Part shown: positions 6,244-14,176 of the stretch, one piece after another
Layout of the letters: each line of letters opens with the position of its first letter
How positions within the stretch are numbered: the first letter of the stretch is position 1
Origin: Streptomyces sp. NBC_00286
GTDB taxonomy: Bacteria; Actinomycetota; Actinomycetes; Streptomycetales; Streptomycetaceae
DNA length: 64,000 nucleotides
Assembly (NCBI RefSeq): GCF_036173125.1
Contig: NZ_CP108054.1
Coordinates: forward strand, 6,043,001 to 6,107,000
Reading direction: 5' to 3'
Program-made: the position numbers and the translations under genes
The notes under the pieces: model-generated
What the model saw: only the letters and a program-made list of their open reading frames with translations
Told to the model about the DNA's origin: nothing
Database searches by the model: none

Positions 6244-7437
<1,194 letters not shown>

Positions 7438-7564: not shown

Positions 7565-8386
<822 letters not shown>

Positions 8387-8523
8387 ACAGCGCTGTGTAA
8401 CGGCGAATATCGACGAAATGTGCGTGCGCGGTTCACGCCGTGTGCTGTTCACGCTGTGCGGCGTTGCTTCAGGGGAGCACTCGGCCCAGACCGTCTTGCG
8501 CGGGGGCGGGCCCTGCGTGACGC

Positions 8524-8700
8524 CCAGAGCGCGAGCCGGAAGTCGCGGCCGGGGATGCGGCCGTGCGTCGCGGCGTTGGCCGCCAGTTCGGCCACGATGT
8601 GGCCGGCTGCTTCCAACGCGAGCTCCCGGGAACGGAGTTGCTCGGTGGCGAGCAGTCCGGCCAGGCGGGCGCCGCGCCGGGTGGATCCGAGAGCTGACGC
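8524..8700 (-). pseudogene. Remnant of an anti-sigma-type HATPase gene
   Basis: The minus strand encodes STRRGARLAGLLATEQLR followed by HIVAELAANAATHGRIPGRD. This matches the N-terminal helix and N-box (E-L-x-x-N-A-x-x-H) of Streptomyces SpoIIAB/RsbW-like ATP-binding regulators. The ATP-lid and later motifs are absent: after FRLALW the frame runs into unrelated Arg/Pro-rich sequence. The upstream part abuts the end of the next gene at 8705 with no plausible start. I read it as a decayed gene in a variable interval. Confidence 0.55.
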
Positions 8701-8704
8701 CCGA

Positions 8705-11653
8705 TCAGTACAGCGTCGGGATCTCGCCGCCCTCAACTCTCCTCAGCGTGACCCCGATTAGGCCGCGCAGTCGGCGTTCCGCGATAGCCGCGAGGTGGGC
8801 CGGAGCCGGTGGGTTGAGGCCCAGGCCGATGGCGTAGCGGAGTGGGTCCGTGGTGAAGGGGCGGGGCCAGGCGTGGGTGGCCGGGGTCGCCTCCGACAGG
8901 TCGGTCAGCAGGGCTCGCATCCTTCCCCGTACCCGGCCCGCGTCAGCGCCGGGGCCCAACTCCACGACCGCCCAGGCCGCGTGGCGGCGGTGCAGTGGGG
9001 GAGGAGACAGCAACTCGGGCCAGGGGAACGGGTCCGGGGTCGAGTCCAGCAACTCCCAGGCACGGAACGGTTCTTGGGTGATGAGGTCTCGCATGCCCGG
9101 CGTGACCTGGTCTGTGCAGGGGCGGACCGGGTCGGACGGTGTCGTGATCGTGAGGGGGAGGGACTGGCGAGACGGTTCGCCCCGGTCACCTGGTTCGCCG
9201 ACCGGGACCCGCCAGTCCCAGGCCGCCCACGTCGCGAAGAAGTGCCGTAGGAGATCGGCCGGGGGCAGCTCGCCGGCCTCCCGCACCGTACGGGCCGCCA
9301 GGACGGACCAGGCCAGGCCCGGCAGCCCGCCGAACGGTGCCGAATCCAGGCCGCGTGCCTTCGCCCACGCCTTGACCTGCCTGGCCAGCCGGGCGAAGGC
9401 CGGTCCGTGGTTGTCGACAGAAGCGAGGAGCGCGTCGGCGTCGCTCACCGCGCTGAGCGCGATCGCCGCCGCCTCGCCCAACTCGGCCCGGTGGGCCACC
9501 GCCTCGGTGGGGTCCATCGAACCGGTCGCCACGACGACCACGTCCACGTCCAGCCCGTCCAGCCACAACCGCAGGCCGGGTACGCGCGCCCCGACCACCT
9601 CCCGCATGTCGCTCGCCTCGGGCAAGGCTTCGGTCAACTTCGCCTGTACGGCGGCGAGTTCAACCGTGCCGGGTAGTGCCGCCACCAGGTCCAGGTCCGC
9701 TCCCGGCAGCGCGCAGCCCATGCGCCGGGAGCCGACGACGTGGACGACGCCGTCGGGGAGGGCCTGCGCGATGCGATGGGTGATGCGGTCTGCCACAGCG
9801 GCGTCGGCCACGGCGGTGTCTGCCGCACCGGCGTCGGCCACGGCGGTGTCTGCCGCACCGGCGTCGGCTACGTCCATGTCGGCGGCCTCGTACCCGTCCC
9901 CGAACCCATAGTCCACGCCCGTATCGCCGGCGTCGTACCCGTAGTGCTCGGCAGCCTCATACCCGTGGTGCGGGGCCTCCTCCGCCCACCGCACCTCTCC
10001 CGTGCCCAACGTCACCGTCCCCCGCAACCGCATCGGCTCGTCCCCGCGCCGCGACAGCAGCGCCAACTCGCCGATCCGTACCGGCATGAGGGTGAGCCGG
10101 GCCTCGCAGGCGGCGGCCAGGGTGTTCGGGTCGGTGGTGCGGCCCAGGCTCAGGTGCGGGGTGAAGGCCGCGTGGCGGCCTCGGCAGTGGGGGAAATGGC
10201 GTACGAGGGTGCGGTGTAGCTCGGCCCACGGCTCCTCGTCGGCCGCCGCCGGGTCCAGCCACACCGTCGCGTAATCCCGGTGGCCGAACCAGTGCACGCC
10301 CTCCAGCCGGGCGTCGAAAGGAGCCGTCCTGGCCGCCGCGAGCACGGATGCCGCCTGCTCAAAGGCGTGTTCCGGTACGAAGCCGAAGAGAACGTTGACG
10401 TGTGGGGGCCAGCGGTGGATCTGCGGGTCGTGGTTCCGGCGGATGTCCTGGAGGGGCGGCCACAGCTCCTGGGGCGGGATCCACGCCAGGGCCGTACGGG
10501 GCGTCGGGCGCGCGTCGAGAACGTCGTACGCCCCTGTCTCGGCCGAGTCCGCCGAGTGCGCCGCCAACTCGACCCGTACTCCGTAGTGATCGGAGATGTG
10601 GAGGCCGTCAGCCGTGGGAGTGTCGCCGTACAGCTCGGCTCGCCGTACGCGCAGGCCCTCCGAGCGCAGCAGCACCCGGTCCAGCCGGGAGGCCCGGCCG
10701 GTGAGGGAGGAGACCGCGGCCAACGGGTTGGCGCCGGGGTCGAACGTCGGCGTCCGGTCATCGGCGCCGTGCGTCTGGCTCCACGCGTCCCGCATACCGA
10801 GGGTCACTTGCGGTGTGTCCCCGCCGTCGTTGAAGTCGCCCATGAGGACGAGGTCGTCTTCCAGGGGCGCCAACCCCTCGGCGATACGGGCGAGTTCGGC
10901 TTCGCGTCGACCGGCGCCGTTCTCGGAGTGGTCGCTGCTGAGGTGGGTCGCGGCGACGACGAGGGGCCGTACTCCCGTCTCCACGACCACCGCGGTCACC
11001 GCCTTGTGCGGCCCCAGCTCGTGGAACGCGGCCTCGCGGACCGGCATCCGGCTCAGCAGCAGCAGACCGTACTCGTCCACGTCCCGCGCCCGAGGGTCCA
11101 TGGCCAGCGTCCAGTCCGCCCGTACCCACGGCTCCCGGAGCAGCATGCCCAGCAGCTCCGCCTCGACCTCCTGCAGCGCGATCACGTCCACGTCGGCATC
11201 CCGCAGGGCCCGCAGGAGCAGAGGCCTGCGCCGGGCGCTGTCGATGCGGTCGGCGTCGTACCGGTCCCAGAGGGTGTTCCACGTCAGGACCCGCACAGCG
11301 CCGGGGCCGGGCTCGGTCCCGTGGGGCGGGCGCGCGGGCCGCCAGTCGTCGCCGTCCCAGGCGTACGGCGTACGGGCCGTGAAGAACGGCGCCCGAAGCC
11401 GCCGCGCCTCCCGCACCCGCCCGGCCTCCGTCGCGTCGATCCGGTCCACGCCCGTGGTCCGGTCCCACACCACCTCGCCGTCGGCCTCGAAGAACAGCAC
11501 CCTGTGCCACGGGATCTCGCCGCCCGGTACGAAGGCGGGCAGCGGAACGCGCTTGGGATCGGCGCCGCGCTGCATGACTCCCAGCACGAAGCGGGCCGGG
11601 TCGAAGCGCGCGTCCCAGCGCACCCGGTGGTAGATCTCCTCGCTCGTACGCAC
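8705..11653 (-). CDS. Multidomain RNA-repair protein: MJ1316 domain, EEP phosphatase, 2H phosphoesterase, poly(A)-polymerase-like nucleotidyltransferase
   Basis: A 982-aa protein. Residues 1-70 form an MJ1316/DUF504 RNA-end recognition domain ([14 protein letters not shown], then IPWHRVLFF and VVWDR). Residues about 119-365 form an endonuclease/exonuclease/phosphatase fold with Asn126 (TWNTLW), Glu162 (QEVE), MGDFND near 271-276 and SDHYGV (His356). Residues about 390-560 form a 2H phosphoesterase with HVN (His418) and HLS (His500). A low-complexity linker (about 563-622) contains the repeat [10 protein letters not shown]. Residues about 630-980 form a class-I-like nucleotidyltransferase with GS (641-642) and DLD (653-655), a further LDVDV at 701-705, and a poly(A)-polymerase-like RNA-binding tail. 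It starts 6 nt after the ligase-kinase gene. I infer end-healing of broken or cyclic-phosphate RNA and nucleotide re-addition. Domain calls are by motif only. Confidence 0.88.
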
Positions 11654-11659
11654 CGTTCC

Positions 11660-13336
11660 TCAGACCTCTTCCTCGATGGTCCCCGTCGCTCCGATGTACC
11701 AGGTGCGATGCGCGTCGCCCGCGTACGGCGGGCCGAAGCGGCGCAACTGGGCGGTGAGCACCTCGGGCGGCACCGGGTGCTCACGGCGGGCGTTGCGCCG
11801 TATCAGCTCGTCCTCGTCGACCAGAACCACGGTGTGGGTGAGCAAGGCGTCGCGGCGGTGGGCGATCGCGTGGACGAGCGAGCGCTGCTGCTTGTTGAGG
11901 GACGTGGCGTCCCAGACCACGGTCCCACCGGTGGCCAGTGCGGTGTCCAGCCGGTCGAGACCCTCGCGCAGGACGTCGGCGTTCGCCCGCTGGTCGGCGC
12001 GTGAACCGCGGGCCTCGCGCAGGTCGTCCAGGCAGATGTACGTGTCTACCCCGTGGAGCCCCCTGGCGAAGGTGCTCTTGCCGCTGCCCGCGGGGCCGAC
12101 CGTCTGGATCAGCTTCGGGAAGTCGCCGGAGCGCCAGCGCCATGTGGCGGCGACTGCCTCGTCGAGACCGTGGATGCGCCCTCGCGCGTACGCCTCCCGT
12201 GCCTCGGCCCGGCAGCGGACGGCCGCGTCGCCCGGCAGACCGGCGAAGGCTTCCCGCAGCCCGCCTTCGTCCAGGCCGTTCCCCTCCGGGCTGCCGATGT
12301 CCTCGGCGTGCATTGCCGACCACTCCACCTGCTCACGTGCCTCGTCCGTGTCCGCCGTGGCCCGGGCGACCGCGTGCAGGAGACCGAGATCGGCGGCGTA
12401 CGACAGCCGTATCAGGCCGGCCCGCCGGTCCTCGTCCGGATACGGCCGGTGCAGCGCCGGGTGCAATCCGACGAGGTCAGCGACCCGGCGTGCGAGCGGC
12501 ATGCCCGCCGTCGCGGCGATCTTGGCGGCTATCCGTGCGCGCTGCTTTCCGTGCAGCAGCGCGGCCAGCACGCCCGCGAGCCGGTCGTCCCCGGACCGCC
12601 CCACCAGATCGAGCCGGGCGGCGGCCTCCGGGTCCTCCTCGCCGGCCAGCCCCACCGCACGCGTCAGGGCGTCCACGTCGACCGCCGCCCCCGAACGTAC
12701 GGCCCACAGGGCGGCCCTCGCCCCGAGCCCGTTCTCCACGACGGCCGCGTGCATCCAGTGCGTGTCCGTCCGCACATGCCCGGCCCGCACCCACTTGGCG
12801 ACCCGCTGCCCGAACTCCTCCGCGCCGAAGGCGTCCACGACCCGTACGACGTATCCCTCCTGTCGCACGGGATCCAGCCGCAGCGCCCGCAGCGCGCGCT
12901 CGTCGAACACGCCCCGCCACAGCACGCGCGGCACGGGAATCCCGATCCCGCGCAGATACGTGACCGTCCGGTCCCAGTCCAGGCAGTGGCCGTCCGCGTC
13001 CCACACCGAGAAGCCGTAGAACCAGCTCTCCAGGTCCTCGTACGCGATCGAATGCCGGGCGTACATGCTCTCCCCGCACACGCGCCAGCCCTCGGGGATG
13101 GCATGACCGATACGCCCCTGGAGCGCTTTGACCCAGGCTCGGGAGGGGTGGTGGGCCGAGTCGAGCGAGCGGGCGTGCAGGCCGTCGGCGTACAGCGTGG
13201 TGTTCTCGCCGTCGAGCTTCTCGGTGACGACGACCTCGCGTCCCCGCAGACCCGACAGGTCCGTGACCCGGAGGTCGTCCGCGGTGGCGCCGGGCGACCA
13301 GGGCAGATGCCGGGTCCGTGGGTAGTGCGTACGCAT
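11660..13336 (-). CDS. RNA ligase fused to polynucleotide kinase
   Basis: A 558-aa protein. The N-terminal half is a nucleotidyltransferase-type RNA ligase: motif I KLDGEN (Lys40 as the AMP-accepting residue), CGESMYARHS, motif III-like WFYGFSVWD, motif IV EGYVVR (160-165) and motif V KWVR (181-184). A helical middle region (about 200-400) leads to a C-terminal P-loop kinase: Walker A GPAGSGKST (414-422), ICLDDLR (Asp437, Asp438) and WDATSLNKQQR (475-485). The ATG follows GGGGGAA on the minus strand. It is the first gene of a two-gene operon with the MJ1316/EEP/2H/nucleotidyltransferase gene. Together they supply 5'-OH phosphorylation, 3'-end processing and sealing, the steps required to repair cleaved tRNA or rRNA. 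The substrate is unknown. Confidence 0.9.
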   Translation of the reverse strand: MRTHYPRTRHLPWSPGATADDLRVTDLSGLRGREVVVTEKLDGENTTLYADGLHARSLDSAHHPSRAWVKALQGRIGHAIPEGWRVCGESMYARHSIAYEDLESWFYGFSVWDADGHCLDWDRTVTYLRGIGIPVPRVLWRGVFDERALRALRLDPVRQEGYVVRVVDAFGAEEFGQRVAKWVRAGHVRTDTHWMHAAVVENGLGARAALWAVRSGAAVDVDALTRAVGLAGEEDPEAAARLDLVGRSGDDRLAGVLAALLHGKQRARIAAKIAATAGMPLARRVADLVGLHPALHRPYPDEDRRAGLIRLSYAADLGLLHAVARATADTDEAREQVEWSAMHAEDIGSPEGNGLDEGGLREAFAGLPGDAAVRCRAEAREAYARGRIHGLDEAVAATWRWRSGDFPKLIQTVGPAGSGKSTFARGLHGVDTYICLDDLREARGSRADQRANADVLREGLDRLDTALATGGTVVWDATSLNKQQRSLVHAIAHRRDALLTHTVVLVDEDELIRRNARREHPVPPEVLTAQLRRFGPPYAGDAHRTWYIGATGTIEEEV

Positions 13337-13867: not shown

Positions 13868-14176
13868 ATGGCGGGACAGAAGATCCGCATCCGGCTCAAG
13901 GCCTACGACCACGAGGTCATCGACTCCTCGGCGAAGAAGATCGTCGAGACGGTGACGCGTACTGGTGCGTCGGTCGCGGGCCCGGTGCCGCTGCCCACTG
14001 AGAAGAACGTGTACTGCGTCATCAAGTCGCCGCACAAGTACAAGGACTCGCGCGAGCACTTCGAGATGCGCACGCACAAGCGCCTGATCGACATCCTCGA
14101 CCCGACGCCCAAGACCGTTGACTCTCTGATGCGACTCGACCTCCCGGCCGGTGTCGACATCGAGATCAAGCTCTGA
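13868..14176 (+). CDS. rpsJ: 30S ribosomal protein S10
   Basis: A 102-aa protein, [20 protein letters not shown] through [10 protein letters not shown], of standard length. The ATG at 13868 is chosen because the in-frame extension upstream runs through the conserved leader hairpin. Part of the 30S head; S10 also pairs with NusB in antitermination. It is the first gene of the S10 operon. Confidence 0.99.

What the first reader, a model, noticed from the sequence alone, without database searches (positions are those of the whole stretch)
8705..13336. Two-gene RNA-repair operon inserted inside the ribosomal/elongation-factor cluster
Sequence shows an RNA ligase fused to a polynucleotide kinase (KLDGEN, EGYVVR, GPAGSGKST). 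Six bases downstream is a 982-aa protein joining an MJ1316/DUF504 domain, an EEP phosphatase, a 2H phosphoesterase and a poly(A)-polymerase-like nucleotidyltransferase. From family knowledge these activities cover every step of RNA break repair: end recognition, 2',3'-cyclic-phosphate opening, 5'-OH phosphorylation, terminal nucleotide addition and sealing. Four end-processing modules in one chain beside a ligase-kinase is unusual. The location between tuf and rpsJ suggests the substrate is tRNA or rRNA damaged by ribotoxins, but that is inference.
Basis: partly seen in the sequence, partly recalled or inferred. Interest (0 to 1): 0.9.

Follow-up and report, generated by a model that had tools for sequence, protein, structure and literature searches.

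The report
Two-gene actinobacterial RNA-break repair operon
A pair of bacterial genes appears to code for a toolkit that recognises, cleans, rebuilds and re-joins broken RNA; its closest studied relative is a radiation-induced Deinococcus operon whose job is disputed.

Summary
Window 13336-11660(-) encodes a 558-aa RNA ligase/polynucleotide kinase; six bases on, 11653-8705(-) encodes a 982-aa MJ1316-EEP-2H-PAP-type nucleotidyltransferase. In the 80 homologous loci read (best of 505) the two genes abut in all (gap -14 to +67 nt), and the main ligase, kinase, EEP and NTase active-site residues are invariant. It is an RNA-repair operon of a known general kind (Burroughs & Aravind; original not readable here). 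Three things were not in the finding. (1) The ligase is 58% identical to Deinococcus radiodurans DRB0100, and the kinase part is related to DRB0098, so a disputed radiation-induced operon can be tested as RNA repair. (2) The stretch between ligase and kinase looks like a decayed HD-phosphatase domain (H107 and D173 not kept in any of 73 aligned rows). (3) The 2H domain is missing in 17 of 80, by at least two and probably four changes, EEP staying intact. Best reading: end-cleaning moved from the dead HD to the partner, with EEP the essential phosphatase and 2H an accessory. EEP specificity is unproven; its nearest solved folds are TDP2, a 5'-end enzyme. The tuf-rpsJ location is incidental (37 of 80 loci). 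No experiment supports the biochemistry.

The parts
11660..13336 (-). RNA ligase-(decayed HD)-polynucleotide kinase gene, 558 aa
12722..13336 (-). RNA ligase (adenylyltransferase) domain, aa 1-205; nucleophile K40, motifs KLDGEN, FYGF, QEGYVVR, AKWV
   Evidence: Pfam RNA_ligase 1.4e-33; K40, D42, G43, E44, N45, E89, E160, G161, K181 each 80/80; 58% identical to D. radiodurans DRB0100 over 204 aa
12128..12718 (-). decayed HD-phosphohydrolase-like helical domain, aa 207-403
   Evidence: profile match of this part to the HD part of DRB0098-type proteins, prob 97-98%; H107 and D173 in 0 of 73 aligned rows; all-helical in the model. Against: Pfam HD is not among the 25 of 30 families shown for 40 members
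11726..12112 (-). 5'-OH polynucleotide kinase domain, aa 409-537, P-loop GPAGSGKS
   Evidence: Pfam AAA_33 2.2e-20; PDB Clostridium Pnkp kinase about 1e-7 by profile; Foldseek 4gp7 2.7e-6; K420, S421, D437, R440, R514 each 80/80
8705..11653 (-). MJ1316-EEP-2H-nucleotidyltransferase gene, 982 aa
11459..11650 (-). MJ1316 domain, aa 2-65, predicted cyclic-phosphate RNA end recognition
   Evidence: Pfam 2.2e-17; R35, W49, H50, R51 80/80, K34 74/80
10586..11287 (-). EEP phosphatase/phosphodiesterase domain, aa 123-356
   Evidence: Pfam 3.5e-19; N126, E162, H237, D273, N275, D325, D355, H356 each 80/80; nearest solved folds TDP2
10037..10477 (-). 2H phosphoesterase domain, aa 393-539; motifs HVN (418-420) and HLS (500-502)
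   Evidence: Pfam 1.5e-30; found in 63 of 80 homologues, not in 17
8708..9802 (-). poly(A)-polymerase-type nucleotidyltransferase, aa 618-982; carboxylates D653, D655, D704
   Evidence: PDB PAP gamma 2.5e-17, 9e-34 by profile; Foldseek 1f5a 3.5e-17; carboxylates in 79 of 79 rows with letters there

Best explanation
The pair is a chromosomal RNA-break repair operon. Predicted order: MJ1316 grips a 2',3'-cyclic-phosphate end left by a metal-independent RNase; the EEP domain, helped by 2H where present, removes the phosphate to leave 2',3'-OH; the PAP-type NTase can restore lost 3' nucleotides; the kinase phosphorylates the 5'-OH end; the ligase, adenylylated on K40, seals. The ligase-kinase is akin to a Deinococcus DRB0100 + DRB0098 pair joined in one chain, whose HD phosphatase domain decayed, its job passing to the partner protein. 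Shown by sequence: gene pairing, domains, active-site conservation, loss of HD residues, repeated 2H absence. Inferred: every reaction, their order, RNA as substrate, and the direction of evolution.
For: Pairing 80/80 with gap -14 to +67, mode -1 (48/80); genus co-occurrence 51/1/2/193 of 247 (counted by me from the tables; Fisher p 3e-49, not corrected for relatedness); both decayed together in G438 (L133). Ligase, kinase and EEP residues listed in 'parts' 80/80, NTase 79/79. 2H absent in 17/80, needing four changes on the ligase-kinase tree, at least two forced by well-supported branches, with no trace by a family HMM; 2 of those 17 genomes hold a separate MJ1316-2H gene; EEP kept in all. 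HD residues lost while the eight HD residues tested are kept in 5 of 5 Deinococcus/Pseudomonas relatives, and in none of 12 plasmid loci around DRB0100-type ligases (12 of 52 matching records fetched, 4-6 kb flanks) does tblastn at 1e-3 find MJ1316, EEP, 2H or NTase. MJ1316 is held to recognise 2'-3' cyclic RNA ends (PMC6514570, passages); ligase + kinase + phosphoesterase + NTase is the published logic of RNA repair (PMC7824862, passages). ANGEL2 shows that an EEP enzyme can be a 2',3'-cyclic phosphatase (PMC12265940, passages).
Against: No experiment on these proteins. [quoted passage not shown] work cited in PMC5128194 has it active as a ligase with DRB0098 and PprA, filed under DNA repair. 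EEP's nearest solved structures are TDP2; ANGEL2 is not among the 50 of 296 matches shown. The first 2H motif is H-x-N. The HD kinship rests on profile comparison and domain order; Pfam HD is not among the 25 of 30 families shown for 40 members, the 50 of 76 Foldseek rows shown are kinase-bearing chains, six rows still have H81 and D82 together, and vestigial H81 (58/73) and H139 (51/73) could be read as partial function. The 80 loci are the best of 505, so biased to close relatives. Unpaired cases: G488, G326, G302 and G032 (genes on different contigs). The genome also has a canonical bacterial Pnkp (1376 bits), so redundancy is possible.
Confidence: 0.68

Rival explanations
1. It is a DNA-break or RNA/DNA-hybrid repair operon, like the DNA role claimed for DRB0100 (LigB) with DRB0098 and PprA; EEP works like TDP2, unblocking 5' ends, and the NTase adds nucleotides at DNA ends.
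For: 58% identity to DRB0100; DRB0098 kinase phosphorylates DNA (PMC1997131, passages); LigB said to be active with DRB0098 and PprA, deletion losing DNA damage tolerance (PMC5128194, passages); EEP nearest to TDP2.
Against: MJ1316, 2H and PAP modules point to RNA; a DRB0100 knock-out was fully radiation-resistant and the protein showed no DNA ligation (PMC1978522, PMC1997131, passages).
Confidence: 0.13
2. (A narrower form of the best explanation, not exclusive of it.) The operon repairs specific tRNA or rRNA cleaved by ribotoxins of rivals or phages, rather than general oxidative or RNase damage.
For: Patchy in the genus (52 of 247) with a decayed copy; the ligase domain has relatives in 32 phage/virus records, mostly with large genomes (30 listed); published logic of conflict-linked RNA repair (PMC7824862, passages).
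Against: No recurrent third partner seen (crude gene calling); no PADLOC match at 0.01; 35 of 80 loci have rpsJ nearby, a housekeeping setting.
Confidence: 0.45
3. 2H, not EEP, opens the cyclic phosphate; in the 17 lineages without it a general ThpR/LigT enzyme substitutes, and EEP does something else (for example unblocks 5' ends or trims 3' tails).
For: 2H is the classical cyclic-phosphate enzyme (PMC9503650, PMC7824862, passages); EEP folds closest to TDP2.
Against: EEP residues 80/80 while 2H is absent in 17/80; a replacement of the same subfamily in 2 of the 17 genomes. General LigT/ThpR enzymes were not searched, so substitution stays open.
Confidence: 0.3

Closest known systems
Deinococcus radiodurans DRB0100-DRB0099-DRB0098 operon (plasmid MP1)
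   Same: Ligase 58% identical over 204 aa, same nucleophile K40; kinase and HD regions homologous
   Different: Separate genes with HD residues intact and a PARG gene; no MJ1316/EEP/2H/NTase found within 6 kb
RNA-repair systems surveyed by Burroughs & Aravind 2016 (recalled, and via papers citing it; original not held)
   Same: ligase + kinase + end-cleaning phosphoesterase + nucleotidyltransferase; MJ1316 fusions
   Different: Whether this exact actinobacterial pair is drawn there could not be checked
Calothrix brevissima plasmid protein BAY66805 (991 aa)
   Same: MJ1316, EEP, 2H and PAP domains in the same order, each above the Pfam cut-off
   Different: Domains 24-39% identical by tblastn; no ligase-kinase hit at 1e-3 within the 17.8 kb fetched
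Bacterial Pnkp/Hen1
   Same: kinase domain; TIGR04075 weak match, 35 bits
   Different: no metallophosphatase or methyltransferase domain found in these two proteins; this genome has a separate full-length Pnkp
Fungal tRNA ligase Trl1 (LIG-KIN-CPD, recalled)
   Same: ligase and kinase in one chain, cyclic phosphodiesterase logic; Trl1-LIG-KIN is Foldseek rank 12
   Different: rmsd 20.5 over the whole chain, so no shared arrangement shown; no EEP, MJ1316 or PAP part (recalled)

Membership tests
ATP-dependent RNA ligase (PF09414) | KxDG motif I lysine and motifs III-V | tested here: met
   Pfam 1.4e-33; residues 80/80
ATP-dependent RNA ligase (PF09414) | seals RNA | not testable with these tools
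   relative DRB0100 only adenylylated (PMC1997131, passages)
DRB0100/DRB0098-type operon | homologous ligase and HD-kinase | tested here: met
DRB0100/DRB0098-type operon | intact HD phosphatase motif | tested here: not met
   H107 and D173 0/73; D82 6/73; depends on the merged alignment
Bacterial Pnkp/Hen1 | Pnkp above the curated cut-off | tested here: not met
   TIGR04075 35.3 of 750 bits
EEP superfamily | conserved Asn/Glu/His/Asp metal and catalytic residues (recalled) and fold | tested here: met
   8 residues 80/80; fold
ANGEL2-like 2',3'-cyclic phosphatase | closer to ANGEL/CCR4 than to other EEP | tested here: inconclusive
   nearest solved structures listed are TDP2
2H phosphoesterase | two H-x-S/T motifs | tested here: inconclusive
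   second motif H-L-S/T in 60 of 61 rows with letters; first has N in place of S/T in 62 of 63
Poly(A)-polymerase-type NTase | GS motif, three carboxylates, PAP fold | tested here: met
Known anti-phage system (PADLOC) | match to a PADLOC model | tested here: not met
   0 families at 0.01

The most novel reading that the evidence does not exclude
A phosphatase swap: in actinobacteria the HD phosphatase of a Deinococcus-type ligase/HD-kinase pair died after fusion and was replaced by an EEP-centred partner that is a bacterial 2',3'-cyclic phosphatase (functional counterpart of human ANGEL2), so that the radiation-induced DRB0098-DRB0100 operon, long filed under DNA repair, is an RNA-repair system too.
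Probability: 0.35. Interest if true: 0.8.

Novelty: new variant of a known kind. Interest (0 to 1): 0.62.

Why it matters
It ties a disputed Deinococcus operon (induced by radiation, knock-out radiation-resistant, ligase inactive in vitro: PMC1978522, PMC1997131, passages) to a system whose partner carries RNA-type modules, giving concrete substrates to try (RNA with 2',3'-cyclic-P and 5'-OH ends, with the partner added). Nature has also run domain deletions: 17 of 80 loci without 2H and a decayed HD suggest which end-cleaning step is dispensable and make EEP's role directly testable.

Tried and rejected
Location as a substrate clue: rejected, rpsJ or tuf in 37 of 80 loci. Phage origin of the 982-aa protein: no match at 1e-5 in 50,697 phage records; the ligase domain matches there (32 records, 30 listed). 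Known defence system: PADLOC 0. A third operon partner: in the 45 largest neighbour clusters none outside the ribosomal/tuf cluster (names recalled) reached more than 15 of 80 loci; its gene calling was a crude GC filter that found the ligase-kinase in 73 and the partner in 42 of 80, so absences are soft. RNA genes nearby: Rfam 0 in window 1-26000, tRNA 0 in the window. Origin of the short MJ1316-2H genes: a tree with five of them did not resolve it. Cyanobacterial survey: not possible. HD fold by Foldseek: the rows shown are kinase-bearing chains. Burroughs & Aravind 2016 is not held. Paper searches listed, by title and start of abstract, no paper on this actinobacterial pair (some lists were capped: 20 of 49, 12 of 13, 10 of 14, 25 of 28); the library is open-access only, so this is no proof of absence.
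Full report
WHAT IS THERE. Two minus-strand genes lie between tuf (6244-7437) and rpsJ (13868-14176; ribosomal names recalled from sequence): a 558-aa ligase-kinase (13336-11660) and, six bases on, a 982-aa protein (11653-8705). Pfam gives RNA_ligase and AAA_33 in the first and MJ1316, Exo_endo_phos, 2_5_RNA_ligase2 and PAP_central in the second, all above cut-off. All four of the latter match in 50 of 50 members of A3, but A3 was chosen for members with 2H and long frames. The predicted structure of the 982-aa protein is confident (pLDDT 84.5) with two low linkers; its best solved matches are poly(A) polymerases (1f5a, E 3.5e-17) and TDP2 (E 1e-11) (50 of 296 matches shown). The ligase-kinase model is poorer (pLDDT 75.9, pTM 0.46); its kinase matches polynucleotide kinases. 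The genome is taken to be a Streptomyces: the nearest named ligase-kinase is from S. ureilyticus, 96% identical.

CONSERVATION. A scan of the genome-contig collection with a ligase-kinase alignment found 505 stretches that encode a relative (of 572 that matched a pattern); the best 80 were kept. In all 80 the partner gene follows directly on the same strand, gap -14 to +67 nt, -1 in 48. Four partner frames run off a contig (L051, L054, L089, L096) and two are short (L050, 849 aa; L093, 501 aa). The ligase, kinase and EEP residues listed under 'parts' are 80/80, kinase R518 79/80; NTase G641, S642, D653, D655, D704 79/79; MJ1316 R35, W49, H50, R51 80/80 and K34 74/80. In 247 genomes of the genus (E up to 1e-20) the ligase occurs in 52 and a long partner in 53: both in 51, ligase alone in 1 (G488, a divergent 206-aa ligase), partner alone in 2 (G326; G302, MJ1316-EEP only) (long partners counted by me from a match table that ends with 'more matches are not listed'). 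The 51 include G438 (remnants) and G012 (ligase part elsewhere). The other 45 of the 98 genomes with a match show, as far as listed, only MJ1316 and/or 2H parts. Of 198 genomes spread over the phylum, 2 hold each gene, the same two. Among 40 relatives of the window's genome, 13 hold both genes (2 of the same genus, 11 of the same order); in 11 they are adjacent (G037 with the partner cut by the contig end), in G032 they lie on different contigs, and in G012 the ligase part lies 2.8 Mb from kinase part and partner, which may be rearrangement or assembly.

LOCATION. rpsJ lies in the flank held (up to 10 kb) in 35 of 80 loci, always divergent, tuf in 21, either in 37. G438 holds a decayed copy between tuf and rpsJ: ligase aa 1-175 is followed at once by EEP pieces and part of the NTase; no kinase, MJ1316 or 2H hit. 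A ligase-less relative (G006) has an MJ1316-2H gene between tuf and rpsJ, also on the minus strand (L043). The site is thus old in part of the genus but says little about substrate.

MODULES CAN BE LOST. In 17 of 80 partners the 2H domain is missing; a family HMM finds no trace in them and finds it in the other 63. On the ligase-kinase tree (quick method) the 17 need four changes (a 14-member clade plus L067, L090, L100), at least two forced by branches with SH-aLRT of 95 or more; reading them as losses assumes 2H is ancestral, which the Calothrix protein favours. Of the 17 genomes, 2 hold a stand-alone MJ1316-2H gene elsewhere (17 of the 63 with-2H genomes were searched alongside). General LigT/ThpR enzymes were not searched. 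EEP is present in all 80. Conversely MJ1316-2H genes live without ligase.

A DECAYED HD DOMAIN. The ligase domain is 58% identical over 204 aa to D. radiodurans DRB0100, K40 at the same position; the rest aligns to DRB0098, an HD-kinase (32% over 305 aa; profiles E 4e-40). The middle part alone matches the HD part (prob 96.9% local, 98.2% global; E 2e-10 and 3e-13 for a single comparison). H43, H51, H81, D82, K85, H107, H139 and D173 are kept in 5 of 5 Deinococcus/Pseudomonas relatives. In 73 actinobacterial rows of a merged alignment H43, H51, H107 and D173 are kept in none (H43, H51 and H107 fall mostly or wholly in gaps), D82 in 6 (with H81 in L049, L081, L096, L108, L112, L114), while H81 (58) and H139 (51) linger. 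Pfam HD is not among the 25 of 30 families shown for 40 members. Around 12 DRB0100-type ligases on plasmids (12 of 52 matching records fetched) 5 have an HD-kinase neighbour and none has MJ1316, EEP, 2H or NTase hits within 4-6 kb. This suggests, but does not prove, that the partner took over the phosphatase step.

LITERATURE (passages only). PMC6514570: MJ1316 recognises 2'-3' cyclic ends and has diverse fusions, citing Burroughs & Aravind 2016. PMC7824862 and PMC9503650: ligase, kinase, phosphoesterase and NTase logic. PMC12265940: ANGEL2, an EEP enzyme, hydrolyses 2',3'-cyclic phosphates. PMC1997131: DRB0100 adenylylates at K40 but no ligation of DNA or RNA was seen; DRB0098 kinase active, HD phosphatase not shown. 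PMC1978522: DRB0100 knock-out fully radiation-resistant, operon strongly induced. PMC5128194: LigB said to be active with DRB0098 and PprA, deletion loses damage tolerance. PMC11833690: DRB0099 PARG cleans ADP-ribosylated RNA/DNA ends; operon proposed for RNA and/or DNA repair. PMC10272220: RtcB in Anabaena, background only. These conflict on whether the Deinococcus operon acts on DNA or RNA.

MECHANISM. Recognition by MJ1316, end-cleaning by EEP with 2H as accessory, optional nucleotide addition by the PAP-type NTase, 5' phosphorylation, sealing. All of it is inferred. Weak points: EEP specificity (nearest solved structures are TDP2, a 5'-end enzyme) and DRB0100's failure to ligate in vitro, which could mean that a partner or special RNA is needed. 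The genome also encodes a full bacterial Pnkp, so the pair presumably does something different, or is redundant.

VERDICT. The added points - the Deinococcus kinship, the decayed HD and the repeated 2H absence - make it a new variant with direct tests.

Noticed in passing
window 7565-8374 (-): Thiostrepton-resistance-type 23S rRNA methylase gene (Pfam TSNR_N 4.8e-43, SpoU_methylase 2.4e-29) beside tuf; relatives lie near the pair in L045, L046 and L065. Described only.
   Followed up: partly
window 8449-8736 (-): 95-aa frame that reads like a truncated anti-sigma-type ATPase (impression from sequence only); no Pfam match at 0.01.
   Followed up: partly
L103:16498-17574 (-): A second RNA ligase (RNA_ligase plus PHA02142 OB-fold, the same Pfam pair as D. 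radiodurans DR_RS15930) near the operon; its cluster occurs in 6 of 80 loci, median 5.6 kb away; only the L103 member was scanned.
   Followed up: partly
L125:7995-10970 (+): Calothrix conjugative-plasmid protein with the same four domains but no ligase-kinase hit in the stretch.
   Followed up: partly
L132:8211-8831 (+); L145:4983-5624 (+): Stand-alone 206- and 213-aa ligases of this type in Streptomyces (L145 on a linear plasmid near dndC), similar in size to those of large phages.
   Followed up: no
L025 and L026 (genome G012): Ligase part and kinase part of the gene lie 2.8 Mb apart, split within the decayed HD domain; real rearrangement or assembly fault not decided.
   Followed up: partly
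L140, L144: DRB0100-type ligases on large plasmids of Miltoncostaea and Bosea lie a few kb from peptidyl-/aminoacyl-tRNA hydrolase genes, in L140 also threonyl-tRNA synthetase.
   Followed up: no
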